From positions 2,242,001 through 2,306,000 of the forward strand of contig NZ_CP061813.1 in NCBI RefSeq assembly GCF_014784055.1: a stretch of 64,000 bases of DNA, written 5' to 3'. Below the pieces are notes generated by a model. That model had not been told where the DNA came from. It worked only from the letters and a program-made list of their open reading frames with translations, and made no database searches. Origin of the DNA: Polaribacter haliotis. Its GTDB lineage: Bacteria > Bacteroidota > Bacteroidia > Flavobacteriales > Flavobacteriaceae. Shown here one piece after another: positions 9,915 through 26,554 of this stretch. Numbering within the stretch: the first letter of the stretch is position 1; each line of letters opens with the position of its first letter. Made by a program: the position numbers and the translations under genes.

Positions 9915-12293
9915 ATGAATTTCTGGACAAAAGCAGCGGGTCTAATTCTACGAAACCGCTATTTAGTTTTATTAATAATAGCTATAATAACTGGTTTATT
10001 AGCATCCCAAATGAAGTATATGAAATTTTCATATACAGAAGCAAACTTGTTACCAGAAGATCATATTGCAAACGTAGAATACAATAAATTTCTTGAAATT
10101 TTCGGTGAAGAAGGGAATTTAGTAATTCTAGGAGTGAAGGATTCAACCGTTTTTACACCTGAAAAATTTAATGCTTGGAATAAATTAGTCGAACAATTCG
10201 ACGAAAGAGACGAAATTGATTTTACCATTTCTATTGCTGACGTTCAAAAATTGAAAGCAGATAGAAAAAAACGAAAATTTGTTTTAGAACCTTTATACGA
10301 AAAAAATCCAACTACTACAGAAGAAGTAAATGCGATAAAAAAACAGCTTTTCGAGAAGCTTCCATTTTATGATAATCTTCTTTATAACAAAGAAACAGGA
10401 ACTTTACAAACTGCTATTTACATTAAAAAAGAAATTATAAATACGCCAAAACGTAGAGATTTTATTTTTGATGTTTTAATTCCTGCAATCAAAAAATTCG
10501 AAAAAGAAAACAACTTAGATGTTCGTGTTTCTGGAATGCCTTATATAAGAACGCTAAATGCACAAAACATTCAAGATGAAATAATTCTTTTTGTTGTTGG
10601 AGCTTTGGGAATTACCGCACTTATTTTCTTCTTTTTCTTTCGTTCTTTTAGAGCAACTTTTATTACACTTTTAGTCGTTTTAATTGGAGTTATTTGGGCA
10701 TTTGGCTTTATTGGTTTATTTCGATATGAAATAACTGTTTTATCAGCTTTAATTCCACCTTTAATTATTGTAATTGGAGTTCCCAATGCTGTTTTTCTTA
10801 TTAATAAATATCAGCAAGAAATAAAAAAACACGGTCAGCAAGCAAAAGCATTACAACGTGTAATTGCTAAAATTGGTAATGCTACTTTAATGACAAATAT
10901 TACAACTGCGTCTGGTTTTGCAACCTTTGTTTTTGTAAAAAGTAACTTACTGCGTGAATTCGGAATTTTAGCTTCCGTAAATATTATTAGCATTTTCATT
11001 TTGGCATTGTTAATCATTCCGATTATTTACAGTTTTATGCCACTTCCAAAGAAAAAACATTTGAATCATCTTGAAAAAAGATGGATAGAGAATGTAGTAG
11101 ATTGGATGGAGAAAATGGTTAGAAACCAAAGAATTACGATATACTTTACCACAGTTGTTGTAATTGTTTTGGGAATTATTGGTGTGTATATGATTCGTGT
11201 TTCTGGTAGTTTGATTGAAGACATGCCTAAGAAAATGGATTTCTATAAAGATATTAAATTCTTCGAAAAAGAGTTTGGTGGAATTATGCCATTAGAAATC
11301 TTAATCGACACAAAAAAGGATAAAGGTGTTATGAAACTTTCCACTTTAAAAAAGATGGAAAAACTAAATGAAGCCATTGAGACTTTTCCTGAATTATCGA
11401 AACCAATTTCTGTTGTAAACTTAGTTAAATATTCTAAACAAGCATACTATAAAGGGAATCCAAAATATTATCAACTACCAACATCACAAGAACAAAGTTA
11501 TATATTTTCGTATACCAAAAATTCTAATAACGATGCTGGCATGCTTAAAACATTTGTAGATTCTACTGGACGTTATGCTAGAATTACTACTTTTATGAAA
11601 GATATTGGTACAGACAAAATGGACGTTATTCAGGAACGTTTAAAAGCTGTAATTGCCAAAGAATTTCCTTCAGATAAATATTCGGTTTCGTTAACTGGAA
11701 AAGCATTGGTTTTTATAAAAGGAACCAATTATTTGATTAAAAATTTAGTAATTTCTTTATCCTTAGCTATTTTATTAATTGCCATTTTTATGGCTTGGAT
11801 GTTTCGATCGCCACAAATGATTTTAATTTCCTTAATTCCAAATATGCTTCCACTCCTAATTACTGCAGGATTAATGGGGTTTTTGAATATTCCTATAAAA
11901 CCATCTACAATTTTAGTTTTTAGTATTGCTTTTGGTATTTCTGTGGATGACACCATTCACTTTTTGGCAAAATACAGGCAGGAATTAATTGCCAATAAAT
12001 GGAAAATAAAACCTTCTGTCTATGCTGCTTTACGTGAAACTGGAGTAAGTATGTTTTATACTTCCATTGTATTATTTTTCGGTTTCTTGGTATTTACTTT
12101 ATCAAGTTTTGGAGGAACAATTGCTTTGGGTGGTTTGGTTTCTGTAACGCTTTTATTAGCTATGGTTTCTAACTTGTTACTATTACCTTCATTATTGTTA
12201 ACTTTTGAAAAGAAAATAGCAAATAAGAAGGTGTTTAAGGAACCTGCAATGAAGATTTTTCCGCAGAATGAAGAGGAGGAATCGAAGAAATAA
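9915..12293 (+). CDS. RND-superfamily transporter of the MMPL type
   Basis: This encodes 792 aa with twelve predicted membrane helices in two homologous halves, each with one helix, a large periplasmic loop and five helices. The second half carries the family motif FGISVDDTIHFLAKYR, with charged residues likely used for proton coupling. The equivalent place in the first half reads VIGVPNAVFLINKYQ and lacks the acidic pair, so the halves are asymmetric. Homologues export lipids or hydrophobic compounds, and in some bacteria hopanoids. The substrate is not predictable here. It is a single gene with its own promoter and terminator. Confidence 0.85.
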   Translation: MNFWTKAAGLILRNRYLVLLIIAIITGLLASQMKYMKFSYTEANLLPEDHIANVEYNKFLEIFGEEGNLVILGVKDSTVFTPEKFNAWNKLVEQFDERDEIDFTISIADVQKLKADRKKRKFVLEPLYEKNPTTTEEVNAIKKQLFEKLPFYDNLLYNKETGTLQTAIYIKKEIINTPKRRDFIFDVLIPAIKKFEKENNLDVRVSGMPYIRTLNAQNIQDEIILFVVGALGITALIFFFFFRSFRATFITLLVVLIGVIWAFGFIGLFRYEITVLSALIPPLIIVIGVPNAVFLINKYQQEIKKHGQQAKALQRVIAKIGNATLMTNITTASGFATFVFVKSNLLREFGILASVNIISIFILALLIIPIIYSFMPLPKKKHLNHLEKRWIENVVDWMEKMVRNQRITIYFTTVVVIVLGIIGVYMIRVSGSLIEDMPKKMDFYKDIKFFEKEFGGIMPLEILIDTKKDKGVMKLSTLKKMEKLNEAIETFPELSKPISVVNLVKYSKQAYYKGNPKYYQLPTSQEQSYIFSYTKNSNNDAGMLKTFVDSTGRYARITTFMKDIGTDKMDVIQERLKAVIAKEFPSDKYSVSLTGKALVFIKGTNYLIKNLVISLSLAILLIAIFMAWMFRSPQMILISLIPNMLPLLITAGLMGFLNIPIKPSTILVFSIAFGISVDDTIHFLAKYRQELIANKWKIKPSVYAALRETGVSMFYTSIVLFFGFLVFTLSSFGGTIALGGLVSVTLLLAMVSNLLLLPSLLLTFEKKIANKKVFKEPAMKIFPQNEEEESKK

Positions 12294-12386: not shown

Positions 12387-15300
12387 TTACTTTTTTATTA
12401 TTCTTTTTACAATTTTCCCATTTTCGCTATTAATATTTAAAAAATAAATTCCTTTTGATAAATCAGAAACATCTATTGCATTTTCAGGATTTCTTATCAC
12501 CTTTACTTTTTTGCCTAAAACATTAAATATCATAATAGTACTGATTTTTAAATTATCTGAATTTTTAATTTGTAATATATCGTTTACAGGGTTTGGATAA
12601 AATGATATTTTTTGTACAATCACATTATCAGCATTTAAAGCACCACAATTTGTATTGTATGATGTTGTAGTATCTTTTTGCCAATCAAGTTTTGCTTCAG
12701 CTTTAGCTACATCATCAACTTTAATACAACTTAAAGCATTATTAAATTTTGTATTTACTACAATAATTGCTTCATTATTTCCATTTCTTAAATTTAAATC
12801 GGTTAATTTATTAGACTCTAAAGTCACAAATTCTAATTTGGTATGCTTGCTTAAATCTAATTTTTGTAAATTATTATTTGTTAAAAATATATCTCTTAAT
12901 TCTAAGTTATTTGATAAATCTAAATTCTCAAGATATACATCAAAAAAATTAATATGGGTTAATAATGTGTTTTTTGTTAAATCTATATTTTGTAACTCTA
13001 ATTCGCCTGCATATAATTGAGTAAGTTTTAAATTTTTGGTTACGTCTAATACTTTAAGACCAGAAGTGGTAACATTTAAAATTTCTAAATTTAAAAGATT
13101 GCCAATATCTAAAGTAGCTAAATCTGTTGTAGCTAAATTTAGATTAATTAAATTGGTTAAAGTATTAATATTTATTGGTGTTATTTTATTGCCCCTTAAA
13201 TTTAAGTACTCTAAATTAGGATACAAAGCACCATTAAAACTTGATAAATTATTGGTATTAAGGTTTAAAATTTTTAAAATTTGCTTGTTAGGTATATCTA
13301 TACTCGTAATTGAATTGTTAGTAACCGTAAGACTAACTAAAGCTGTATTTGTTAATAAATCTATAGAAGATAATCCCATTCTATCTAAACGTAATAATTT
13401 TAAATTTGGAGAAGTTTTTACATCAACAGTAAGTTTAGCTGAGTTACTAATTTCTAAATTTTCTAAATTTGAAGCTTCACTAAGATTTAAACTTTCTAAA
13501 TTTACATGACCATTTAATGCCAAAGTTTTAAGTGCACTATTATTTTGTAATTTTATTTCTAATAAAGTATTATCGAAAGTATTAGATTGGTAACTTTCTA
13601 GTTTTTGCAAACCAGATAAATCAACACTAATTACTGGGTTAAAATGAACTTGTAAATCTTTTAAATTATCAAATTCTGTTATTCCTTTTAAACTAACAAT
13701 GCCTCTATTATTTAAGTTTAACTCTTCAATTTTTAATGCTTCAGATTTTAAGATGTAGCCATTGTAAACATCATCAAAACCGAGATTAACTAATGCATAT
13801 TCAAAATTTTGATCTTCTATTTTTATTGGTGTTCCTAAATTATTTGAAGTTTGAAAGCCACAATTACTATTAAATACTGAATTAGCATCCACATCTGTAA
13901 AATTAGCAACTGCATAAGCTACATCGTCTACTTGTACACAAGTCAGATTTGGTGCATTTAATAGCTCTATAGTAGAGGCCACTTTATTAAAACCATTATT
14001 TAAGTTAACTTTTTCTAAATTAGTAATATTTTTAGCATATAAAATAGTAATTGGACAATTACCAAAATCTAATTCTTTTATAAAAATATTATCATTTATA
14101 CTAAAAGTGCCTAATTTTTCATTTTTACTAACATCTATATTTTCTAATTTATTTGAATTTACGTATACTTCTTCCAATAAAGTATTTTTTGTTATATCTA
14201 AAGCATCTATTGAGTTATTATTTGCATATAAATATATCAATTTCAGATTGTTAGTAACATCTAATCTAGAAAAATCACAATTTTCTATATTTAATCTTTC
14301 TAAATCTAAAAAAGCATTTGTATTTATTGTATTGCCTATTTTACTACCTGCTATGTCTAAACCCTTAAGTTTTGTTAATCCGTTTATATTAAGTACTGTA
14401 AAATCTACCTTTTGATTATTTACATTTATAGTTTCTAAATTAGTTAAAGCAGTTGCATCAAAAGACGAAAAATTATTTTGAGATAAATTTATAGATTCTA
14501 TACTACTTGGTATTGTAATTGTATTTATATTGTTACTATAAGCACCTAAAGATTTTAATTTTATATTTTTACTTAAATCTAACTGCTGTAAATTGTTACT
14601 GTATATAAAAAAACTCTCTAAAACTACATTTTTAGAAACATCTATTTTTTCTATTTTATTTAAAGCTAAAAAACAACTGGTTAAATTTATATTTTTAGAT
14701 AAATCTATATCTTTAACACTTGTTAAACCAATTTGAAAGTTATCTAAATTTATGCATCCAGATAAATTTGTATAAACAAGAGCATTATTAAAGTTTAAGT
14801 TTAACGACTTTAATTCTGGATTATCTTTTAATAATACTGCTTGTGTAGTTGTATTATTTGCACCAATATATTCTAATTTTTGTAGGCCAGTGAAGTCTAT
14901 TATTTTCACTTGACTATTACTAAAGAGGAATCTTGTTAAATTATTAAAGTATTTAACTCCTTCATAATTAGCTGTAATATAATTTCTTACATTTAGGGAT
15001 TCTATCTTATTAGCGTTAGTTTTTAGTATGTAGCCATCAATAATATCATCAAAACCCATATCTATTAAAGCGAATTCAAAATCTTGATTTGGTATATTTA
15101 TTACTTCTATATAATTACAGTTGCTGTTAAAATTGGCTTTGCTATCTATGTTGCTCCAATTTATTTGAGAATACACTGGGTCATCAACTTGAATGCAGCC
15201 TAAATTAGAGTTATTGGTTAAATCTACAACAGTTAAATTTGTATTATTTCCATTTTTTAGATCTAGTTGCATTAAATTTTGATTGTTAAAAAGACGTAGT

Positions 15301-15908
15301 TGTTTTAGCTTAGTTGCTTTACTTAAATCTAACGAAGCAAACTTATTATTTGGTGCGTATAAATCTTCTAAATTGGAATTTTCACCAAAAATAATTGTGC
15401 CTAAATTATTATTTTGTATAAATAATGATTTTAGTTTTGTATTCTTAGAAATATCTATAGAGGTTAAAGAATTGTTAGCTAAGTTTACAGAAGGTAGGTT
15501 TATAAAAGCTTCAATACCTGTAAGGTTAGTAATACCTTTGTTACTGCCATCTAAAGCAAAATTTACAGCTTCAGCTTCAGTAATTTGTATTTCATCATCA
15601 TTATTTGTATTTATTGCTGGTTCTGCTAAAAGCGCATTTTTTAAAAGAATATCTGGTATTTTTACAATTTCAGAACTAAGAGACGTAGATTTTTTGTAAG
15701 TTAGGTTACTTATTGTTTTTTTATTTTGTTGCTTATTTATCTCTCTATATTTTATAGCATCTTTGTAAGTTATAGTTCCATCAAATCCATTATTGTCAAA
15801 CCCTTTTTCTATTAGTTCTTTCTCTAAGTTTTTATCTATAATTGTTAATTCTTGACAATAAATATTTATTGTCAAAAAAAGTATTGGTAATAGTAATTTT
15901 CTTTTCAT
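12387..15908 (-). CDS. Large secreted leucine-rich-repeat protein with T9SS sorting domain
   Basis: This encodes 1173 aa. The signal peptide is MKRKLLLPILFLTINIYCQ. The body consists of about 21-residue repeats of the pattern LxxLDLSKNxxLxxLxxxxN. It is split into blocks by internalin-type caps at about residues 82, 271 and 694 (IPNQDFEFALIDMGFDD; IEDQNFEYALVNLGFDD). Each block closes with a Cys-flanked segment (NLTCVQVDD ... FNSNCG; NALSCIKVDD ... YNTNCG), likely a disulfide-capped C-terminus. The last about 75 residues are a type A T9SS sorting domain (FYPNPVNDILQIKNSDN ... LSKGIYFLNI). It is predicted to be exported and surface-attached, probably for binding or adhesion. The ligand is unknown. 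Confidence 0.88.
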   Translation of the reverse strand: MKRKLLLPILFLTINIYCQELTIIDKNLEKELIEKGFDNNGFDGTITYKDAIKYREINKQQNKKTISNLTYKKSTSLSSEIVKIPDILLKNALLAEPAINTNNDDEIQITEAEAVNFALDGSNKGITNLTGIEAFINLPSVNLANNSLTSIDISKNTKLKSLFIQNNNLGTIIFGENSNLEDLYAPNNKFASLDLSKATKLKQLRLFNNQNLMQLDLKNGNNTNLTVVDLTNNSNLGCIQVDDPVYSQINWSNIDSKANFNSNCNYIEVINIPNQDFEFALIDMGFDDIIDGYILKTNANKIESLNVRNYITANYEGVKYFNNLTRFLFSNSQVKIIDFTGLQKLEYIGANNTTTQAVLLKDNPELKSLNLNFNNALVYTNLSGCINLDNFQIGLTSVKDIDLSKNINLTSCFLALNKIEKIDVSKNVVLESFFIYSNNLQQLDLSKNIKLKSLGAYSNNINTITIPSSIESINLSQNNFSSFDATALTNLETINVNNQKVDFTVLNINGLTKLKGLDIAGSKIGNTINTNAFLDLERLNIENCDFSRLDVTNNLKLIYLYANNNSIDALDITKNTLLEEVYVNSNKLENIDVSKNEKLGTFSINDNIFIKELDFGNCPITILYAKNITNLEKVNLNNGFNKVASTIELLNAPNLTCVQVDDVAYAVANFTDVDANSVFNSNCGFQTSNNLGTPIKIEDQNFEYALVNLGFDDVYNGYILKSEALKIEELNLNNRGIVSLKGITEFDNLKDLQVHFNPVISVDLSGLQKLESYQSNTFDNTLLEIKLQNNSALKTLALNGHVNLESLNLSEASNLENLEISNSAKLTVDVKTSPNLKLLRLDRMGLSSIDLLTNTALVSLTVTNNSITSIDIPNKQILKILNLNTNNLSSFNGALYPNLEYLNLRGNKITPININTLTNLINLNLATTDLATLDIGNLLNLEILNVTTSGLKVLDVTKNLKLTQLYAGELELQNIDLTKNTLLTHINFFDVYLENLDLSNNLELRDIFLTNNNLQKLDLSKHTKLEFVTLESNKLTDLNLRNGNNEAIIVVNTKFNNALSCIKVDDVAKAEAKLDWQKDTTTSYNTNCGALNADNVIVQKISFYPNPVNDILQIKNSDNLKISTIMIFNVLGKKVKVIRNPENAIDVSDLSKGIYFLNINSENGKIVKRIIKK
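12401..12600 (-). repeat. Sorting-domain cassette, copy 1
   Basis: This stretch, coding for the T9SS C-terminal domain, is almost identical to 16106-16305 with only about half a dozen mismatches in 200 bases. The rest of the two LRR genes is much more divergent. This indicates recent duplication or gene conversion of the tail. Confidence 0.85.
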
Positions 15909-16091: not shown

Positions 16092-19000
16092 CTACTTTTT
16101 AACGATTCTTTTTACAATTTTCCCGTTTTCGCTATTAATATTTAAAAAATAAATTCCTTTTGATAAATCAGAAACATCTATTGCATTTTCTGGATTTCGT
16201 ATCACCTTTACTTTTTTGCCTAACACATTAAATATCATAATAGTACTGATTTTTAAATTATCTGAATTTTTAATTTGTAATAAGTCGTTTACAGGGTTTG
16301 GATAGAGTTTTATTTTGTCAGAAAATGACACATCTTCTGTATTTAAGGTAGCGTCATAATTTAAAGTAATTCTTTCTGTTTCTATTGTTAAACCAGTAAT
16401 TACTGTGTTAGATACTACGCAATAATAAAAGGCGGCATCTGAACTTGTAGCATCTTTAATTTCATAAGTACTATTGGTTGCATCAGTAATTGGACTCCAA
16501 TTTTTATACCATTGATAAGTATTATTGGTTCCACTCACAACAGCTTCTAGTGTTTTATCAAAACCATCGCCAAAATCAATTGCTTCTTCTACTCCTACTT
16601 TTGCTTGAGTTGAGTAACTAAATGTTTGTAAATTTTGATAATTTGTAAACTCATCTTCAAAATCTCCAAACTGAAACTTGTTACTATTAACATATAAACT
16701 TGTTAAATTTGTAGCATTTGTAAAATCTGGTAAGTTACCTTCAATTTCGTTATTTTGTAGATAGACTGTTTTTAAGGCTAACATATTACTCATTTCTCTT
16801 GGTAAACTTGTAATCTTGTTACTATTTAAATACAAAGTTTCCAGTGAGGTTAAGTTTCCAAAAGTTGCTGGTAAAGCTCCTGAAATTTCATTAGAACTTA
16901 TTTGTAAATTCGTCAACTTGGTTAAATTCCCAATACTGGTTGGTAATTCACCCTTCAATTGATTACTACTCAAAGAAATATTGGTAATGTGTTTACCACC
17001 ATCTACAATTTTAGTAGTTACACCTTGCCATTTTGTAGCATTGTATGGATTATTAATTAAAGCTTTAGCTAAATTACCATTCCAATTGGTGTTATTTCTC
17101 CAATTTGCTCCATCCAAATTATTATACATATCTACCAAAGCTTGCATTTCGTTTTCTGGTATATTATTGTAAGCACTACAATCTTGCCCCCAAACTATGC
17201 TTGGGTAATTTGTTGCATGAGTAGTAGCTTCCCAATCTGAAATTGTATTTTGTGGAACTGCAATACAGTTTAAGTATTGATTGTAAAAACTAAAATCGTT
17301 CCTAAATTGGTTTTCTGAATCATAACTTCTATCAAAAACATTTGGTAAAACACCTATCTTTAGTCCAGTAATTTGGTTACTTGAAACGATTAATGAAGTT
17401 AGATTTACAAGGTTACTAAAATCTAAATTACCTTCTAATTGATTAGAACCTAGTTCTAATCTTTTTAAAGAGGTAAGATTATTAATTTCCGTAGGAATTG
17501 TTTTTAATATATATTCAGAATCTTTTAGTTGACTCGTAAAAGTTAACTGTTCCAAATTACCTAACTCTCCAATTTCTGCAGGAATTTCTGAAATAGCATT
17601 ACTATTTATTTCTAATTCTTTTAATTGAGTTAAATTTTTAATGACAGATGGTATAGTACCATCTAATTGATTAGAATTTAACTCAACTTTAGTAACATGT
17701 TTCTGTCCGTTTATTATAGCTGTTGTAACTCCATACCAAGCACCTACATTTCTTTTTTGGGTTGTATCATTTAACCAAGTAACACCATTATATGATGCAG
17801 ATAAATCGTTTCTCCAATCCATACCTTTTGTATTGTTGTAAATTGCAATTAAAGCATCTCTTTCTAAATCTGGAATAGAATTGTTAGTTACTGCACTACA
17901 ATTATTTGAATAAACTACGCCATTGTCTATTTTGTTATTTTTTTCATTTGCTTCTGATAATTGCCAAGCAACTAATTCATCTGTTGGCACTTCTATACAG
18001 CCTAATGCGTTTCTTTTTGCTGAAAAATTTGAAACAGAATTACCCCCAAAAATTGTAGGTGAAACACCTAATTTTAATTTTTTAATACCATTGTAATTTA
18101 AATATAATGATGTTAAAATTTTTAAATTTTCTAAATTTAAATCACCTTTTATTAGGTTATTATTAAGTCTTAATTCTTTTAGATTTAATAAATTACCAAT
18201 AGTACTTGGTAAACCCTTTAATGAATTACTCGTAACACTTAACTCTTCTAAATTTGTTAAACTACCAATAGTGCTTGGTAAACTTGTTAAACCATTACTA
18301 TCTAAATTTAGTAACTTTAAATTTGTAATATTTCCTATCTCATTTGGTAAAACCATTAATGTTTGGTCTCCTTCATAACAATTACCTGTACATTGACTAT
18401 CTATTATCAATCTTTCTAATTTTGCAAAATTACCAATACCAACAGGTAAACTCGTCAATTCGTTAGACGATAAATTTAGATAAGTTAAATTTGGTAAATC
18501 TCCTATTTCATCTGGTAATTCTGTTAATTTATTATTGTATAAGTGCAGACTTTCCAGCTTACCTAACAAACCAATCTCTTTTGGCAAGCTTGTTATGCTA
18601 CAACTTCTAGTTGGATAATTAGCATCACCTAAATTTAAAACAACTAGTTCTGTTAAATCTTTTATTTCTGACGGTATTGCTCCTTCTACTCCATAAACTT
18701 CTAAATGAATGGAAGTAATATGCTTCTGACCATTTACTAAACCTGTAGTAATTCCTTGCCAAGAACCAACATTACTTAATCCTGAAGGATTAATATCCCA
18801 ATTCGTACCAACCCAAGTCGTACCTTCATCACTAGTATTTGCTCCTCCTCCTGTAGATTTATAAAAAGCAATTAAAGCTTCTCTTTCTTTTTGTGGAACT
18901 CTGTAGCCTGTACAATTATCACTGATAGCAACTCCATTGTCTACTGATAATTGATTAGAACTTTTCCAAGAACTTAATTCAGCTGTTGGTACTTCTACAC

Positions 19001-22000
19001 AAGTTAAATTTGGATTACTAGTTATGTATGCATAAAATGGGCTTCCTCCTAACTTTATTCCTGTAATTAAATTTGTACCTAATGATAAGGAAGTTAATGA
19101 AGTTAAATTACTAAAATCTAAATCACCTTCAATTTTATTATTGGAAGCATTTAAAGTTTTTAAAGTAGTAAGATTATTAAGCGCACTTGGTAGACTCGTT
19201 AAATGATAAACATAAGGTGAACCTGACGTATATTGAGATTGTATATCTAAATCTTCTAATGAACTTAAATTACCAATCTCTTCTGGTAAACTCTCTAATT
19301 TATTAGAACTTAAGCTTGCTATTTTTAATTTTGATAAATTACCAATAGTACTTGGTAAACCAGTTAATAAATTACTCGTAATACTTAACTCTTCTAAATT
19401 TGATAAACTACCAATAGTGCTTGGTAAACTTGTTAAACCATTACTATCTAAATTTAGTAACTTTAAATTTGTAATATTTCCTATCTCATTTGGTAAAACC
19501 ATTAATGTTTGGTCTCCTTCATAACAATTACCTGTACATTGACTATCTATTATCAATCTTTCTAATTTTGCAAAATTACCAATCCCAGCAGGTAAACTTG
19601 TTAATTCGTTTGAAGATAAATTCAAGTAAGTTAAATTGGGTAAATCTCCTATTTCATCTGGTAATTCTGTTAATTTATTATTAATTAGATATAGAGTTTC
19701 CAGCTTAACCAACATACCTATTTCTTTTGGTAAACTTGTAATATTACAACTTCCATTCGGATAACGACCATCACCTAAATTTAGTGAAACCAATTCTGTT
19801 AAATCTTTTATTTCTGACGGTATTGCTCCTTCTACTCCATAAACTTCTAAATGAATGGAAGTAATATGCTTCTGACCATTTACTAAACCTGTAGTAATTC
19901 CTTGCCAAGAACCAACATTACTTAATCCTGAAGGATTAATATCCCAATTCGTACCAACCCAAGTCGTACCTTCATCACTAGTATTTGCTCCTCCTCCTGT
20001 AGATTTATAAAAAGCAATTAAAGCTTCTCTTTCTTTTTGTGGAACTCTGTAGCCTGTACAATTATCACTGATAGCAACTCCATTGTCTACTGATAATTGA
20101 TTAGAACTTTTCCAAGAACTTAATTCAGCTGTTGGTACTTCTACACAAGTTAAATTTGGATTACTAGTTATGTATGCATAAAATGGGCTTCCTCCTAACT
20201 TTATTCCTGTAATTAAATTTGTACCTAATGATAAGGAAGTTAATGAAGTTAAATTACTAAAATCTAAATCACCTTCAATTTTATTATTGGAAGCATTTAA
20301 AGTTTTTAAAGTAGTAAGATTATTAAGCGCACTTGGTAGACTCGTTAAATGATAAACATAAGGTGAACCTGACGTATATTGAGATTGTATATCTAAATCT
20401 TCTAATGAACTTAAATTACCAATCTCTTCTGGTAAACTCTCTAATTTATTAGAACTTAAGCTTGCTATTTTTAATTTTGATAAATTACCAATAGTACTTG
20501 GTAAACCCTTTAATGAATTACTCGTAATACTTAACTCTTCTAAATTTGTTAAACTACCAATAGTGCTTGGTAAACTTGTTAAACCATTACTATCTAAATT
20601 TAGTAACTTTAAATTTGTAATATTTCCTATCTCATTTGGTAAAACCATTAATGTTTGGTCTCCTTCATAACAATTACCTGTACATTGACTATCTATTATC
20701 AATCTTTCTAATTTTTCGAAATTACCAATCCCAGCAGGTAAACTTGTTAATTCGTTAGACGATAAATTTAGATAAGTTAAATTTGGTAAATCTCCTATTT
20801 CATCTGGTAATTCTGTTAATTTATTATTGTATAAGTGCAGACTTTCCAGCTTACCTAACAAACCAATCTCTTTTGGCAAGCTTGTTATGCTACAACTTCT
20901 AGTTGGATAATTAGCATCACCTAAATTTAAAACAACTAGTTCTGTTAAATCTTTTATTTCTGACGGTATTGCTCCTTCTACTCCATAAACTTCTAAATGA
21001 ATGGAAGTAATATGCTTCTGACCATTTACTAAACCTGTAGTAATTCCTTGCCAAGAACCAACATTACTTAATCCTGAAGGATTAATATCCCAATTCGTAC
21101 CAACCCAAGTCGTACCTTCATCACTCGTATTTGCTCCTCCTCCTGTAGATTTATAAAAAGCAATTAAAGCTTCTCTTTCTTTTTGTGGAACTCTGTAGCC
21201 TGTACAATTATCACTAATAGCAACTCCATTGTCTACTGATAATTGATTAGAACTTTTCCAAGAACTTAATTCAGCTGTTGGTACTTCTACACAAGTTAAA
21301 TTTGGATTACTAGTTATGTATGCATAAAATGGGCTTCCTCCTAACTTTATTCCTGTAATTAAATTTGTACCTAATGATAAGGAAGTTAATGAAGTTAAAT
21401 TACTAAAATCTAAATCACCTTCAATTTTATTATTGGAAGCATTTAAAGTTTTTAAAGTAGTAAGATTATTAAGCGCACTTGGTAGACTCGTTAAATGATA
21501 AACATAAGGTGAACCTGACGTATATTGAGATTGTATATCTAAATCTTCTAATGAACTTAAATTACCAATCTCTTCTGGTAAACTCTCTAATTTATTAGAA
21601 CTTAAGCTTGCTATTTTTAATTTTAATAAATTACCAATAGTACTTGGTAAACCAGTTAATAAATTACTCGTAATACTTAACTCTTCTAAATTTGATAAAC
21701 TACCAATCGTGGTTGGTAAACTCGTTAATCTATTACTATTTAAATTTAATGATGTTAACTTATTAATATTCCCAATATTAGCAGGCAACTTCGTCAATTT
21801 ATTATTTTGTAAAGTCAACTCCTCCAACAAAACCAAATCAGACATATCCTCTGGTAAATCTGTATTAAAATTAGCATTCTCTTCTCCTAATCTATTGTTA
21901 TGTAATCGTAAGAATTTCAACTTTGTAAAACCACCTAAACCAGAAACTACTTGTAATTCATTATCATTTAAAAATAACGTTTCTAATTGGGTAAGATTTG

Positions 22001-23447
22001 CAAAAGCGGCAGGTGTATTTGATAATTCACAATTTGCAAAATCTAAAAATTGTAGTTTGGTTAGTTGCCCAAATTCTGAAGGAATACTTGCAATATTATT
22101 TGGTGCTGCTACTAATCTTCTCAACTCCACTAAACCACCAATTTGCGGTGGTAATAAAGATATTTTTGTGTTGGCAAATTCTAAAATTTCTAACTTTTTT
22201 AAATTTCCAATTGTTGTTGGTATTAAATCTATTTGTGTATTGCTAAAATACAATTGTTCTAAATCTGTAAAACTACCTAAACCAGATGCTATTGAAGGAA
22301 TTTGATTATTACTAATATTTAGAATCTTTAAATTTACTAAATCGTAAAAATTAGCTGGAATTGCAGTAATTGAGTTATTATTCAAATACAAATCTTCTAA
22401 TTTGCTCGCGTTTTTTAATTCTGTTGCAATGGTATTAATTCCAGAATTTGGTATGTGTAAATGTTTTAACTCTGTAAAAACACCAATTTCTACTGGCATT
22501 GGTCCATTAATTCCTGAACCTGTAGTATGAATTTCAGTAATTCTGGTTTCTCCATTAAGGACTTCAACATTTAACCATTCTGTATCATTTACTCCAGATT
22601 TTATTGTGTTTGCGTACGTGTATGTTTTATTTTCATATAGTTTTTTTAACGCTTCTCTTTCTAAAGTGTTTGGAGTTGCTGTTTTGTCTGCTTGGTCATA
22701 AGCAACTATTTTTAAACCTAAATCGAAATAATCTGAACCTAAATTTGTAAAACTTGCCACATTTGGTATTTCTATAAATGCTAGATTTGGCGTATTTTGA
22801 ACTCGTAATCTTCCATTTTGGGTAATATTTTGACCTGAAACAGTATTAGAAGATAATTTTAAAAAACTAATATTGGTATCATAAATTTGAACAGTAGTGA
22901 TAGCATTAAACTGACTAAAATCTAAACTACCAGAAAATGGGTTCTTTGCAATCCAAACAGAATTAATATTGCTAGGAAAAAGATCTTGACTTATTTCTCC
23001 AGTTAACTTATTATCAATTAAATTTATAATTCTGAGACTACTTAATTGCGATAAATCTGGAAAATTACCAAAAAGGTTGTTTTCTCTTAAACCTATATAA
23101 TTAATATTATCAGGAAAATTACTGACTGCTATTTCATCACTTATAGAATTGTTTGATAATTCTAACCTTCTTAAATTTGTTAAATTATATAAATTGCTTA
23201 TGTTTCCAGACAGATTATTCTCAAATAATCTAATCTCTATTATAGTATTATTTTGTACAGTTACTCCAAACCAAGTAGAAACATCAGAAGTTGAGTTTAT
23301 ATCTGTATCCCAATTGGTATTATTTGTCCAATTGTCGCCATCTGTAGCATTGTAAAAATCTATTAAAGCTTGCCTTTCTGATTGAGAAATTTGTGCGGTT
23401 ATTGCAAAAGAAAAAAACGTAAATAATAATAGTAGTTTTGTTTTCAT
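16092..23447 (-). CDS. Giant secreted multi-block leucine-rich-repeat protein with Ig-like and T9SS sorting domains
   Basis: This encodes 2451 aa. The signal peptide is MKTKLLLLFTFFSFAITAQ. There are seven LRR blocks, each opening with a cap like the plant LRRNT_2 domain (ERxALxxxYNxTxGxxW, then W.GVT) at about residues 22, 261, 754, 1136, 1518, 1861 and 2099. The LRRs are of the 23-residue type LTSLPxxIGxLxxLxxLxLxxN. Blocks 3-5 are near-identical copies of a 382-residue unit. Residues about 2276-2357 form an Ig-like domain (TYQWYKNWSPITDATNSTY ... AAFYYCVVSN). The last about 72 residues are a T9SS sorting domain (LYPNPVNDLLQIKNS). It is predicted to be a very long surface protein for binding or adhesion. 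Confidence 0.88.
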   Translation of the reverse strand: MKTKLLLLFTFFSFAITAQISQSERQALIDFYNATDGDNWTNNTNWDTDINSTSDVSTWFGVTVQNNTIIEIRLFENNLSGNISNLYNLTNLRRLELSNNSISDEIAVSNFPDNINYIGLRENNLFGNFPDLSQLSSLRIINLIDNKLTGEISQDLFPSNINSVWIAKNPFSGSLDFSQFNAITTVQIYDTNISFLKLSSNTVSGQNITQNGRLRVQNTPNLAFIEIPNVASFTNLGSDYFDLGLKIVAYDQADKTATPNTLEREALKKLYENKTYTYANTIKSGVNDTEWLNVEVLNGETRITEIHTTGSGINGPMPVEIGVFTELKHLHIPNSGINTIATELKNASKLEDLYLNNNSITAIPANFYDLVNLKILNISNNQIPSIASGLGSFTDLEQLYFSNTQIDLIPTTIGNLKKLEILEFANTKISLLPPQIGGLVELRRLVAAPNNIASIPSEFGQLTKLQFLDFANCELSNTPAAFANLTQLETLFLNDNELQVVSGLGGFTKLKFLRLHNNRLGEENANFNTDLPEDMSDLVLLEELTLQNNKLTKLPANIGNINKLTSLNLNSNRLTSLPTTIGSLSNLEELSITSNLLTGLPSTIGNLLKLKIASLSSNKLESLPEEIGNLSSLEDLDIQSQYTSGSPYVYHLTSLPSALNNLTTLKTLNASNNKIEGDLDFSNLTSLTSLSLGTNLITGIKLGGSPFYAYITSNPNLTCVEVPTAELSSWKSSNQLSVDNGVAISDNCTGYRVPQKEREALIAFYKSTGGGANTSDEGTTWVGTNWDINPSGLSNVGSWQGITTGLVNGQKHITSIHLEVYGVEGAIPSEIKDLTELVVLNLGDANYPTRSCSITSLPKEIGLLGKLESLHLYNNKLTELPDEIGDLPNLTYLNLSSNELTSLPAGIGNFEKLERLIIDSQCTGNCYEGDQTLMVLPNEIGNITNLKLLNLDSNGLTSLPSTIGSLTNLEELSITSNSLKGLPSTIGNLSKLKIASLSSNKLESLPEEIGNLSSLEDLDIQSQYTSGSPYVYHLTSLPSALNNLTTLKTLNASNNKIEGDLDFSNLTSLTSLSLGTNLITGIKLGGSPFYAYITSNPNLTCVEVPTAELSSWKSSNQLSVDNGVAISDNCTGYRVPQKEREALIAFYKSTGGGANTSDEGTTWVGTNWDINPSGLSNVGSWQGITTGLVNGQKHITSIHLEVYGVEGAIPSEIKDLTELVSLNLGDGRYPNGSCNITSLPKEIGMLVKLETLYLINNKLTELPDEIGDLPNLTYLNLSSNELTSLPAGIGNFAKLERLIIDSQCTGNCYEGDQTLMVLPNEIGNITNLKLLNLDSNGLTSLPSTIGSLSNLEELSITSNLLTGLPSTIGNLSKLKIASLSSNKLESLPEEIGNLSSLEDLDIQSQYTSGSPYVYHLTSLPSALNNLTTLKTLNASNNKIEGDLDFSNLTSLTSLSLGTNLITGIKLGGSPFYAYITSNPNLTCVEVPTAELSSWKSSNQLSVDNGVAISDNCTGYRVPQKEREALIAFYKSTGGGANTSDEGTTWVGTNWDINPSGLSNVGSWQGITTGLVNGQKHITSIHLEVYGVEGAIPSEIKDLTELVVLNLGDANYPTRSCSITSLPKEIGLLGKLESLHLYNNKLTELPDEIGDLPNLTYLNLSSNELTSLPVGIGNFAKLERLIIDSQCTGNCYEGDQTLMVLPNEIGNITNLKLLNLDSNGLTSLPSTIGSLTNLEELSVTSNSLKGLPSTIGNLLNLKELRLNNNLIKGDLNLENLKILTSLYLNYNGIKKLKLGVSPTIFGGNSVSNFSAKRNALGCIEVPTDELVAWQLSEANEKNNKIDNGVVYSNNCSAVTNNSIPDLERDALIAIYNNTKGMDWRNDLSASYNGVTWLNDTTQKRNVGAWYGVTTAIINGQKHVTKVELNSNQLDGTIPSVIKNLTQLKELEINSNAISEIPAEIGELGNLEQLTFTSQLKDSEYILKTIPTEINNLTSLKRLELGSNQLEGNLDFSNLVNLTSLIVSSNQITGLKIGVLPNVFDRSYDSENQFRNDFSFYNQYLNCIAVPQNTISDWEATTHATNYPSIVWGQDCSAYNNIPENEMQALVDMYNNLDGANWRNNTNWNGNLAKALINNPYNATKWQGVTTKIVDGGKHITNISLSSNQLKGELPTSIGNLTKLTNLQISSNEISGALPATFGNLTSLETLYLNSNKITSLPREMSNMLALKTVYLQNNEIEGNLPDFTNATNLTSLYVNSNKFQFGDFEDEFTNYQNLQTFSYSTQAKVGVEEAIDFGDGFDKTLEAVVSGTNNTYQWYKNWSPITDATNSTYEIKDATSSDAAFYYCVVSNTVITGLTIETERITLNYDATLNTEDVSFSDKIKLYPNPVNDLLQIKNSDNLKISTIMIFNVLGKKVKVIRNPENAIDVSDLSKGIYFLNINSENGKIVKRIVKK
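16106..16305 (-). repeat. Sorting-domain cassette, copy 2
   Basis: This is the near-identical partner of 12401-12600 at the 3' end of the neighbouring LRR gene, 3705 bases away in the same orientation. Confidence 0.85.
18190..21710 (-). repeat. In-frame 1146-bp tandem repeat inside the giant LRR gene (about 3.07 copies)
   Basis: Equivalent positions recur at 18190, 19336, 20482 and 21628, exactly 1146 bases (382 codons) apart. Similarity ends near 21710. Variant sites alternate: the SNSLKGLPS version occurs at 18190 and 20482, and the SNLLTGLPS version at 19336 and 21628. GDANYPTRSCS and LHLYNNKL occur in the first and third copies, while GDGRYPNGSCN and LYLINNKL occur in the middle copy. 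The array is therefore best read as A-B-A-b, i.e. a 2292-bp dimer that has been amplified. Confidence 0.92.
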
Positions 23448-25093: not shown

Positions 25094-26554
25094 ATGTTAA
25101 AACAAAGTTTAAATTATAAACTCTTACAGAAATTATCTCCTCAACAAATTCAGTTGATGAAGCTAATTCAACTACCTACACAAGCATTTGAGGAACGTTT
25201 AAAACAAGAGATTGAAGAAAATCCTGCTTTAGATACAGGAAAAGACGAATCAGATTCTATAGACGACGATTTATCTAATGAGTTTGATGATGACTCTGGA
25301 AACGAAAAAATTGAAGCAGAAGATATAAATATTGATGAGTATTTAAGTGATGACGAAATTCCAAATTACAAAACTCAAGCAAATAATTATTCTGCAGATG
25401 ATGAAGAAAAAAACGTCCCTTATGCTGCAGGCACTAGTTTTCATCAATCTTTAAAAAACCAATTAAATACATTTCGTTTAGACGAAGAAGAAAAAGCAAT
25501 TGCCGAATTTTTAGTAGGTAGTATAGACGATAGTGGTTACATTCGAAGAGAAATTATAGATCTTGTAGACGATTTAGCATTTACAGCAAACATTTTTACA
25601 ACAGAAGAAAAAGTTATTTCCGTTCTTAAAAAAGCTGTACATACTTTAGATCCAATTGGGGTTGGTGCTCGCGATTTAAAAGAATGTTTAATCATTCAGT
25701 TAAAAGCAAAAGAGCCTAATAAAAATAGAAGTTTAGCGATTGAAATTTTAGATACTGCTTTCGATCATTTTGTAAAGAAACACTATAAAAAATTACAAGA
25801 GAAGTTCAATATTTCCGAAGAAGAACTCAAAGAAATAAATACAGAAATTTCAAAACTAAATCCAAAACCTGGTAGTTCTTATGCTGGGAATAATAAAATT
25901 GCAGAGCAAATTGTACCGGATTTTTCTATTAAAATTATTGATGGAGAATTAGATTTAGTTTTAAATTCTAGAAATGCTCCAGAATTACATGTTTCAAGAG
26001 AATATAATAACATGTTAAAAGGGTATCAAGAATCGAATATAAAAACGAAATCACAGAAAGATGCAGTTTTCTTTATTAAACAGAAGTTAGATGCTGCAAA
26101 GTGGTTTATAGATGCCATAAAACAGCGTCAGCAAACACTTTTGATAACCATGAATACTATTATGCATTATCAATACGATTATTTTTTAACAGGTGATGAG
26201 CGAAAGCTAAAGCCAATGATTTTAAAAGATATTGCAGATAAAATTAATATGGATGTTTCTACGGTTTCTAGAGTTGCAAATAGCAAATATGTTTCTACAC
26301 CTTATGGAACAAAGTTAATTAAGGTTTTCTTCTCTGAATCTATGAAAAACGATCAAGGTGAAGATGTTTCTACAAGACAAATTAAGAAAATTTTAGAAAC
26401 AGTTATAACAGAAGAAAACAAGAAAAAACCACTTACAGACGAGAAATTAGCGGCTATTTTAAAAGAAAAAGGTTACCCAATTGCAAGAAGAACTGTTGCA
26501 AAATATAGAGAACAATTAGATTTACCAGTTGCTCGTTTGCGTAAAGAAATTTAG
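25094..26554 (+). CDS. rpoN: RNA polymerase sigma-54 factor
   Basis: This encodes 486 aa. Region I at the N-terminus is LSPQQIQLMKLIQLPTQAFE, the part that contacts activator ATPases. An acidic region II covers residues about 50-120. The core-binding and DNA-binding regions follow. The C-terminus carries the RpoN box (ARRTVAKYREQLDLP). Sigma-54 directs transcription from -24/-12 promoters with AAA+ activators. None of those activators is visible in this window. The TAG stop overlaps the GTG start of the next gene by one base. Confidence 0.96.
   Translation: MLKQSLNYKLLQKLSPQQIQLMKLIQLPTQAFEERLKQEIEENPALDTGKDESDSIDDDLSNEFDDDSGNEKIEAEDINIDEYLSDDEIPNYKTQANNYSADDEEKNVPYAAGTSFHQSLKNQLNTFRLDEEEKAIAEFLVGSIDDSGYIRREIIDLVDDLAFTANIFTTEEKVISVLKKAVHTLDPIGVGARDLKECLIIQLKAKEPNKNRSLAIEILDTAFDHFVKKHYKKLQEKFNISEEELKEINTEISKLNPKPGSSYAGNNKIAEQIVPDFSIKIIDGELDLVLNSRNAPELHVSREYNNMLKGYQESNIKTKSQKDAVFFIKQKLDAAKWFIDAIKQRQQTLLITMNTIMHYQYDYFLTGDERKLKPMILKDIADKINMDVSTVSRVANSKYVSTPYGTKLIKVFFSESMKNDQGEDVSTRQIKKILETVITEENKKKPLTDEKLAAILKEKGYPIARRTVAKYREQLDLPVARLRKEI

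What the first reader, a model, noticed from the sequence alone, without database searches (positions are those of the whole stretch)
18190..21710. A 382-codon unit in a giant LRR protein amplified as an A-B-A-b array
Exact 1146-bp periodicity keeps the reading frame, and each unit carries a complete LRR block: cap, LRRs and Cys-closed end. Variants alternate between copies (SLKG/LLTG, LHLYNNKL/LYLINNKL, DANYPTRSCS/DGRYPNGSCN), so the last event duplicated a 2292-bp dimer rather than a monomer. Near-identity of copies over more than 1 kb implies the event is recent, or that conversion keeps copies alike. Length variation by whole blocks would alter the reach or avidity of a surface protein, like a strain-variable adhesin.
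Basis: seen in the sequence. Interest (0 to 1): 0.72.

Follow-up and report, generated by a model that had tools for sequence, protein, structure and literature searches.

The report
Swappable, self-matching surface receptor array
A giant surface protein of a marine bacterium holds three nearly identical receptor-like blocks that its relatives hold too, but most species keep their own version alike in all copies, and some close relatives carry quite different versions in an otherwise nearly identical protein.

Summary
The repeat is real: window 18170-21707 (minus strand) holds three 1146-bp units plus about 0.1 of a fourth, inside an intact 2451-aa T9SS-type LRR protein. Copies 1 and 3 share variants at 40 of 49 in-array sites, clustered: one 189-bp patch has synonymous pS 0.52, the 708 bp beside it 0.00-0.013. 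Relatives change the interpretation. Of 15 genus genomes with the gene, 11 (own included) have a resolved array: three modules in 10, two in 1. Copies group by genome in 9 of 11. In a sister pair with one array layout, 49 sites are fixed between genomes, 14 and 9 vary within, none is shared. So the copies are old and kept alike (concerted evolution), not freshly duplicated. A second database sequence of this gene has the same length but A-A-A instead of A-B-A: conversion, or a polishing error. Some close relatives differ wholesale in the array: P097 and G041 are 96.5% and 97.0% identical on either side, 52% inside. Each unit is predicted to be one LRR domain with a variable concave face. Best reading: a homogenised three-module binding array, exchanged as a cassette. 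Ligand and donor unknown.

The parts
16092..23447 (-). 2451-aa LRR surface protein gene (P0001) holding the array
   Evidence: Pfam LRR_14/LRR_4/LRR_8, Por_Secre_tail, Ig_3 below its cut-off
21768..23447 (-). signal peptide and N-terminal LRR region (residues 1-560); residues about 300-560 are the conserved pre-array LRRs
   Evidence: the signal peptide is read by eye
18170..21707 (-). tandem array, period 1146 bp, about 3.1 copies
20622..21767 (-). copy 1 (phase; its first ~60 bp lie before the array proper)
19476..20621 (-). copy 2 (holds the B patch)
18330..19475 (-). copy 3 (A patch, with its own cluster of four changes within 19 bp)
19608..19796 (-). diverged patch in copy 2 (DGRYPNGSCN type); counterparts in copies 1 and 3 at 20754-20942 and 18462-18650
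   Evidence: pS 0.524 to copy 1, against 0.013 in the tail beside it; read as A type in P0003
20046..21191 (-). central module 1, cap to cap: complete LRR domain, 382 aa
   Evidence: AlphaFold2 model; alignment A3
18900..20045 (-). central module 2, cap to cap
17877..18899 (-). central module 3, cap to cap; its 3' part has left the array and joins the constant region
16092..17876 (-). post-array region: two further capped LRR modules, weak Ig-like stretch, T9SS sorting tail (residues 2381-2451)
12387..15908 (-). second LRR/T9SS gene (P0002, 1173 aa), next to the first; its last 213 bases match those of 16092-16304 with 10 mismatches
   Evidence: best matches in the stretches of three relatives only 29-51% over 97-303 aa
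23633..25069 (+). asnS, neighbour (found beside the gene in 13 of 14 relatives)
9915..12293 (+). MMPL/RND transporter, neighbour on the other side (found in 11 of 12 relatives where that side was fetched)

Best explanation
The array is an old three-module block of complete LRR domains in a T9SS-type surface protein. SHOWN: in most genomes examined the modules are homogenised at DNA level, synonymous sites included, so that a species' modules evolve together (concerted evolution). SHOWN: between some close relatives the whole array differs, with borders at the array edges, while the flanking protein is nearly identical. INFERRED (likely): gene conversion does most of the homogenising, since copy number stays at three in 10 of 11 genomes; unequal crossing-over may help. 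INFERRED (likely): homologous recombination through the conserved flanks brings in a new array, or one new module that then spreads to the others. INFERRED (plausible): each module is a binding domain whose concave face sets specificity, three like copies give avidity, and swapping the array changes the target in one step. The target (algal or animal surface, prey, phage or kin) is unknown.
For: Copies group by protein in 12 of the 15 multi-copy proteins tabulated (10 with starred support; BM10 at 86 and G109 at 94 are not starred), and G041 c1 with c3. Sister pair G108/G109, same 431-codon layout: flank dS 0.18 and 0.10, between-genome array dS 0.175-0.21, within-genome 0.004-0.031; 49 fixed, 14 and 9 segregating, 0 shared sites; grouping of their first copies by position is rejected (AU p 2.9e-4). 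P0003, a second sequence of this gene, differs from the window only in the array: E911A plus one stretch (residues 1221-1362) that turns module 2 from B to A type at unchanged length, as one conversion tract would. Flank/array/flank identity 96.5/52.1/97.0% (P097 v G041), 95.2/53.2/80.3% (G000 v P. cellanae), 95.3/51.5/91.1% (P0006 v P0010), borders at the array edges. G000 v P. cellanae synonymous pS: array 0.60; neighbours asnS 0.31, rpoN 0.35, MMPL 0.36, gene at 26554 0.45; pre-array LRRs down to 0.00. Array data reject these three pairs (AU p 2.8e-4, 1.5e-4, 2.5e-116) that the pre-array tree joins (99, 96, 94). Exposed-face identity 0.25 in the array against 0.71 in the pre-array LRRs of the same 7 genomes. 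T9SS tail above cut-off, PorV family present.
Against: No donor: among the listed hits nothing but the query itself is above 55% identical to the G000 module or above 48% to the P097 module (120 hits shown each). Three Tenacibaculum-type proteins are not homogenised; their copies group partly by position. Homogenisation is incomplete elsewhere: within-array dS reaches 0.11 in G000 (c1-c2), 0.14 in Hel1_85 and 0.44 in P. litorisediminis. P0003 may be an assembly or polishing error rather than a strain. The post-array tree joins P097+G041 and P0006+P0010 but leaves G000 and P. cellanae unresolved. In 54 of 210 pairs the array is not less alike than the pre-array part, in 50 not less than the post-array part. 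Enrichment of amino-acid changes on the concave face is not significant between G000 copies (p 0.67) or between sister arrays (p 0.67), and a first motif-based test was flat (p 0.68). The AU groups were named after the trees were seen. Nothing bears on the ligand.
Confidence: 0.72

Rival explanations
1. Recent tandem amplification: one module was duplicated, then a 2292-bp dimer, so the copies look alike only because they are young.
For: 40 of 49 in-array variable sites pair copy 1 with copy 3; lag-2292 identity is 98% over 1302 bp.
Against: Three modules in 9 of 10 relatives with a resolved array; sister pair with the same array layout but separate homogenisation; the patch pS of 0.52 inside one unit exceeds the divergence of four neighbouring genes between G000 and P. 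cellanae, 0.31-0.45.
Confidence: 0.12
2. In-place hyperdivergence: the array was never replaced; strong diversifying selection plus homogenisation changed all copies together.
For: Homogenisation lets a change spread to all copies; no donor found; concave-face positions are the most variable.
Against: Synonymous sites in the array are at pS 0.60, near saturation, while four neighbouring genes are at 0.31-0.45, which selection on amino acids alone does not give; P097 and G041 differ by 32 codons of unit length and in 48% of residues between flanks 97% alike.
Confidence: 0.17
3. Periscope-type length regulator: copy number is the trait, and the modules are a stalk that sets how far an N-terminal head reaches.
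For: Highly identical tandem domains in a surface protein; P. ponticola has two modules, several metagenome proteins one.
Against: 10 of 11 resolved genomes, own included, have three modules; LRR solenoids are curved binding domains rather than plain rods (recalled); array type, not number, is what varies between the close pairs P097/G041 and G000/P. cellanae.
Confidence: 0.15
4. Assembly artefact: the copy number, or the B variant of copy 2, is wrong.
For: Repeats over 1 kb are hard for short reads; three draft genomes break in this gene (G083, G048, G139); P0003 disagrees with the window in copy 2.
Against: The window's genome is one contig; the B patch differs too much (pS 0.52) to be made by an assembler; independent single-contig genomes have the same layout; P0003 agrees on copy number.
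Confidence: 0.03

Closest known systems
Periscope Proteins (SasG, Aap, Rib, Sgo0707; PMC9704523, passages seen)
   Same: Surface proteins with tandem, separately folding domains kept highly identical at the level of coding sequence; homologous recombination proposed as mechanism
   Different: Here the unit is a complete LRR domain of 375-432 aa; copy number is nearly fixed at three in the genomes seen; T9SS protein; the array type can differ wholesale between near relatives
Streptococcal alpha-like proteins, Alp family (PMC13106166, passages seen)
   Same: Alleles with internally identical repeats whose repeat type differs between alleles, by mosaic recombination
   Different: Repeats of about 80 aa in variable number, LPXTG anchoring, on mobile elements in S. 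dysgalactiae; here LRR modules at a chromosomal locus shared by 13 of 14 relatives
Fungal HET-D/HET-E NWD genes (PMC1805685, passages seen)
   Same: Repeats of a recognition domain evolve in concert, grouping by species rather than by orthologue; variable interaction face
   Different: Short WD repeats exchanged among ten loci (unit length and intracellular site recalled); here one locus and whole domains of an exported protein; positive selection not shown
Leptospira LRR proteins (PDB 4u08, 4u09, 4u06)
   Same: Among the best solved-structure matches to the predicted module (4u08: Foldseek E 3e-15, TM 0.56)
   Different: 28-29% identity; no three-module array in those entries' listing; other phylum (recalled)
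Internalins / XopL-type LRR effectors (NCBIfam models)
   Same: LRR profile similarity
   Different: All below the curated cut-offs

Membership tests
T9SS type A cargo | C-terminal sorting domain above curated cut-off (TIGR04183, PF18962) | tested here: met
   54.1 bits against 23; 57.1 against 27
T9SS type A cargo | T9SS in the same genome | tested here: met
   PorV family model over cut-off at two places; 72 sorting-tail matches, 71 marked over the cut-off; other T9SS parts not searched
T9SS type A cargo | Actual export and surface attachment | not testable with these tools
   needs cell fractionation or surface labelling
Array under concerted evolution | Copies group by species rather than by position | tested here: met
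   12 of 15 tabulated multi-copy proteins, 2 of these without starred support; not in 3 Tenacibaculum-type proteins; sister pair
Array under concerted evolution | Homogenisation acts on DNA (synonymous sites) | tested here: met
   within-array dS 0.00-0.03 in G050, G108, G109, G078 and G000 c1-c3; 0.02-0.44 in G013, G120, G062 and G000 c1-c2 and c2-c3
Periscope Protein class | Highly identical tandem domains | tested here: met
Periscope Protein class | Domain folds individually | tested here: inconclusive
   confident prediction only
Periscope Protein class | Repeat number varies between strains | tested here: inconclusive
   three in 10 of 11 genomes, two in 1; no strain series available
Periscope Protein class | Array forms a rod | not tested
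   only one module was modelled
Internalin A family | NF033189 curated cut-off | tested here: not met
   146.3 bits against 1600
Antigenic variation from silent cassettes in the genome | Donor copies elsewhere in the genome | tested here: not met
   outside the gene only 35-bp and 34-bp DNA matches; no further module-like place among the own genome's listed protein matches (capped list)

The most novel reading that the evidence does not exclude
A bacterial recognition locus with a 'write once, copy to all' design: a three-module LRR receptor whose specificity changes in one step by importing a module or array, after which homogenisation rewrites the other copies so that all three again bind the same new target. 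Near-fixed copy number with free choice of type would make it a recognition-type locus (host, prey, phage or kin), analogous to fungal HET recognition genes or streptococcal Alp alleles, rather than a length-variable adhesin.
Probability: 0.3. Interest if true: 0.78.

Novelty: new variant of a known kind. Interest (0 to 1): 0.58.

Why it matters
It offers a clean natural experiment for two processes that are usually mixed up: homogenisation inside one gene, and replacement of an allele. If the modules bind a surface ligand, near relatives with the same backbone and different arrays would show directly how a marine flavobacterium changes its target while keeping the number of binding domains. 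It also warns that short-read genomes and metagenomes can break or collapse this gene, and that polishing may erase real differences between copies.

Tried and rejected
Motif-based test of changes on the concave LRR face: it found only 4 LRRs in the G000 frame and was flat (p 0.68). I then repeated the test with positions taken from the model: significant between array types (odds 2.8, p 1.5e-6, but the four pairs share one row and are not independent), weaker within six pooled array pairs (p 0.012), not significant within G000 or the sister pair. Silent cassettes: none seen. Origin of the diverged patch: no close match among fetched loci or proteins (best 59% over 66 aa; DNA list cut at 60 rows). 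Donor search with two modules: none. Tail conversion between neighbours: seen, not pursued. Papers: searches; no listing named this array. I saw listings only, and passages of three papers; the library is open-licence only.

Rows dropped: the G083 row; G041 copy 2 (cut by its frame break); G083, G048, G004 and G139 are not in the array trees; copy 2 of G050, G108 and G109 and G041's later modules are not in A3. One search examined 45 pairs and printed 11. In one search my label 'rpoN 23633' is wrong: one search shows asnS there and rpoN at 25094. A draft of this report treated P0003 as identical to the window protein and the gene as lying at one locus in all relatives; searches corrected both.
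Full report
OBSERVATION. The gene at 16092-23447 (minus strand, 2451 aa) is intact. It carries a repeat with exact 1146-bp spacing. In three aligned copies 62 sites vary; 13 of them lie at the outer edge, before the array proper. Of the remaining 49, 40 pair copy 1 with copy 3, 5 are private to copy 1 and 4 to copy 3.

MOSAIC. The 40 alternating sites are not spread out: 36 fall in 183 bp (interval chosen after looking). Synonymous divergence between copies 1 and 2 is pS 0.524 in that patch and 0.013 in the 708-bp tail beside it; copies 2 and 3 are identical in that tail, with a 714-bp exact run. The patch divergence is higher than that of four neighbouring genes between this genome and Polaribacter cellanae (asnS 0.31, rpoN 0.35, MMPL 0.36, the gene at 26554 0.45). 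So one unit contains stretches of very different age. A single duplication does not give this.

A SECOND SEQUENCE OF THE SAME GENE. The database protein listed as the window's own (P0003; contig length 3,800,707 against 3,800,626 for the window's genome) has the same length as the window protein but differs at 15 residues, all in the array: E911A, eleven residues in 1221-1255 and three in 1349-1362. The last fourteen turn module 2 from the B to the A form, so that its three copies read A-A-A. One conversion tract of at least 420 bp (spanning residues 1221-1362) would do this without changing copy number, which crossing-over would not do as simply. The other reading is that one of two assemblies of the same or a very near strain was polished to the majority. 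The B patch itself is too divergent to be an assembly product. I could not tell these apart.

PROTEIN. Pfam and NCBIfam find LRRs along most of the protein and a T9SS sorting tail above cut-off. The genome has two PorV-family places and 72 sorting-tail matches. AlphaFold2 on one cap-to-cap module, with 27 aligned modules, gives pLDDT 89.8 and pTM 0.90: helical cap, hairpin, about ten LRRs, end cap. The best solved-structure matches include Leptospira LRR proteins, plant receptor ectodomains and SHOC2. Two end-cap cysteines are invariant in all 27 modules.

CONCERTED EVOLUTION. In a tree of 51 array frames the copies of one protein group together in 12 of the 15 multi-copy proteins tabulated (10 starred, 2 at 86 and 94), and G041's first and third copies do too. 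Three Tenacibaculum-type proteins are exceptions, with copies partly grouped by position, and the data reject grouping of the T. jejuense copies (AU p 6.4e-4). The cleanest case is the sister pair G108/G109: same 431-codon layout, flank dS 0.184 and 0.098, array dS between genomes 0.175-0.21, within genomes 0.004-0.031. Across 1125 aligned bases 49 sites are fixed between the genomes, 14 and 9 vary inside one, none is shared. The array was there before the split, and both arrays were homogenised since. Synonymous sites are included, so this is a DNA process. It is not complete everywhere: within-array dS reaches 0.44 in P. litorisediminis.

CASSETTE REPLACEMENT. P097 and G041 are 96.5% identical before the array, 52.1% inside it and 97.0% after it; in 30-residue steps identity is 0.87-1.00 up to residue 570, 0.27-0.67 in the array, and 0.97 again at about residue 1900. 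G000 and P. cellanae show 95.2/53.2/80.3%, P0006 and P0010 95.3/51.5/91.1%. The pre-array tree joins all three pairs (99, 96, 94); the post-array tree joins the first and third and leaves G000 and P. cellanae unresolved. Array data reject all three (AU p 2.8e-4, 1.5e-4, 2.5e-116; groups chosen after seeing the trees). For G000 and P. cellanae the DNA shows that this is not selection on amino acids alone: pS is 0.60 in the array, 0.31-0.45 in four neighbouring genes, and 0.00 in residues 301-350 upstream. The low value upstream suggests that flank segments are exchanged too. Over all 210 pairs of 21 proteins the array is less alike than the pre-array stretch in 156 and than the post-array part in 160. 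No donor was found, so the source lineages are unsampled or the arrays diverged in place; I put replacement well ahead.

HOW UNUSUAL. Of 236 proteins fetched as relatives of this gene or its modules, 15 repeat at least 300 aa at 90% or more; 10 of these are orthologues of this gene. P0113, a less close relative, is one of the other five. The property looks characteristic of this family rather than of giant LRR proteins in general.

FUNCTION. In the module, positions exposed on the concave face are 27% identical across ten lineages, against 78% for core and 57% for other positions. In the conserved pre-array LRRs of seven genomes the same class is 71% identical, against 25% in the array of those seven, so this is not a general lack of constraint on LRR faces. 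Amino-acid changes are enriched there between array types (odds 2.8) but not between G000 copies or sister arrays. Positive selection is not shown. I infer a binding face that sets specificity, in three like copies.

VERDICT. Not a fresh duplication and not mainly a length-variable adhesin: an old three-module array, homogenised within most genomes and replaced between some close relatives. The kind is known (Periscope Proteins, Alp alleles, fungal NWD repeats; passages seen in PMC9704523, PMC13106166, PMC1805685). The combination of whole LRR domains, near-fixed copy number and wholesale type replacement in a T9SS protein was not named in the listings of the paper searches made.

Noticed in passing
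residues 911 and 1221-1362 of P0001 (window about 19362-19787 and 20715): A second database sequence of this gene (P0003) differs only in the array and reads A-A-A where the window reads A-B-A.
   Followed up: partly
12387-12599 and 16092-16304: The last 213 bases (T9SS sorting tail and stop) of two neighbouring, otherwise unlike LRR genes differ at only 10 positions, while the sequence just upstream is unlike; looks like conversion of the tail between neighbours.
   Followed up: partly
12387-15908: Second LRR/T9SS gene between the array gene and the MMPL gene; in the stretches of P. cellanae, KT25b and P. ponticola only 29-51% matches over 97-303 aa were found.
   Followed up: partly
window 22398-22547: Residues 301-350 show no synonymous difference to P. 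cellanae although four neighbouring genes differ at 31-45% of synonymous sites, suggesting recent exchange of this flank as well.
   Followed up: partly
L029 (G041): The orthologue in G041 is broken by a one-base length difference inside its second module, in a genome of one contig; may be real or a sequencing error.
   Followed up: no
P0006 and P0010, residues 61-240 and about 1446-1535 of P0010: Two further stretches drop to about 0.43-0.67 identity between otherwise nearly identical proteins, so the first LRR block and a C-terminal stretch may be exchanged too.
   Followed up: no
L032 (P. litorisediminis): The gene lies away from asnS, rpoN and MMPL, and its post-array part is unlike all others compared (33-44% identity in the pairs seen), as if gene and C-terminal part had been moved or replaced.
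   Followed up: partly
G000:C1 864404, 899045, 1958006, 71546 and others: The genome has other giant T9SS-tailed frames (up to 4404 codons) that were not examined for arrays.
   Followed up: no
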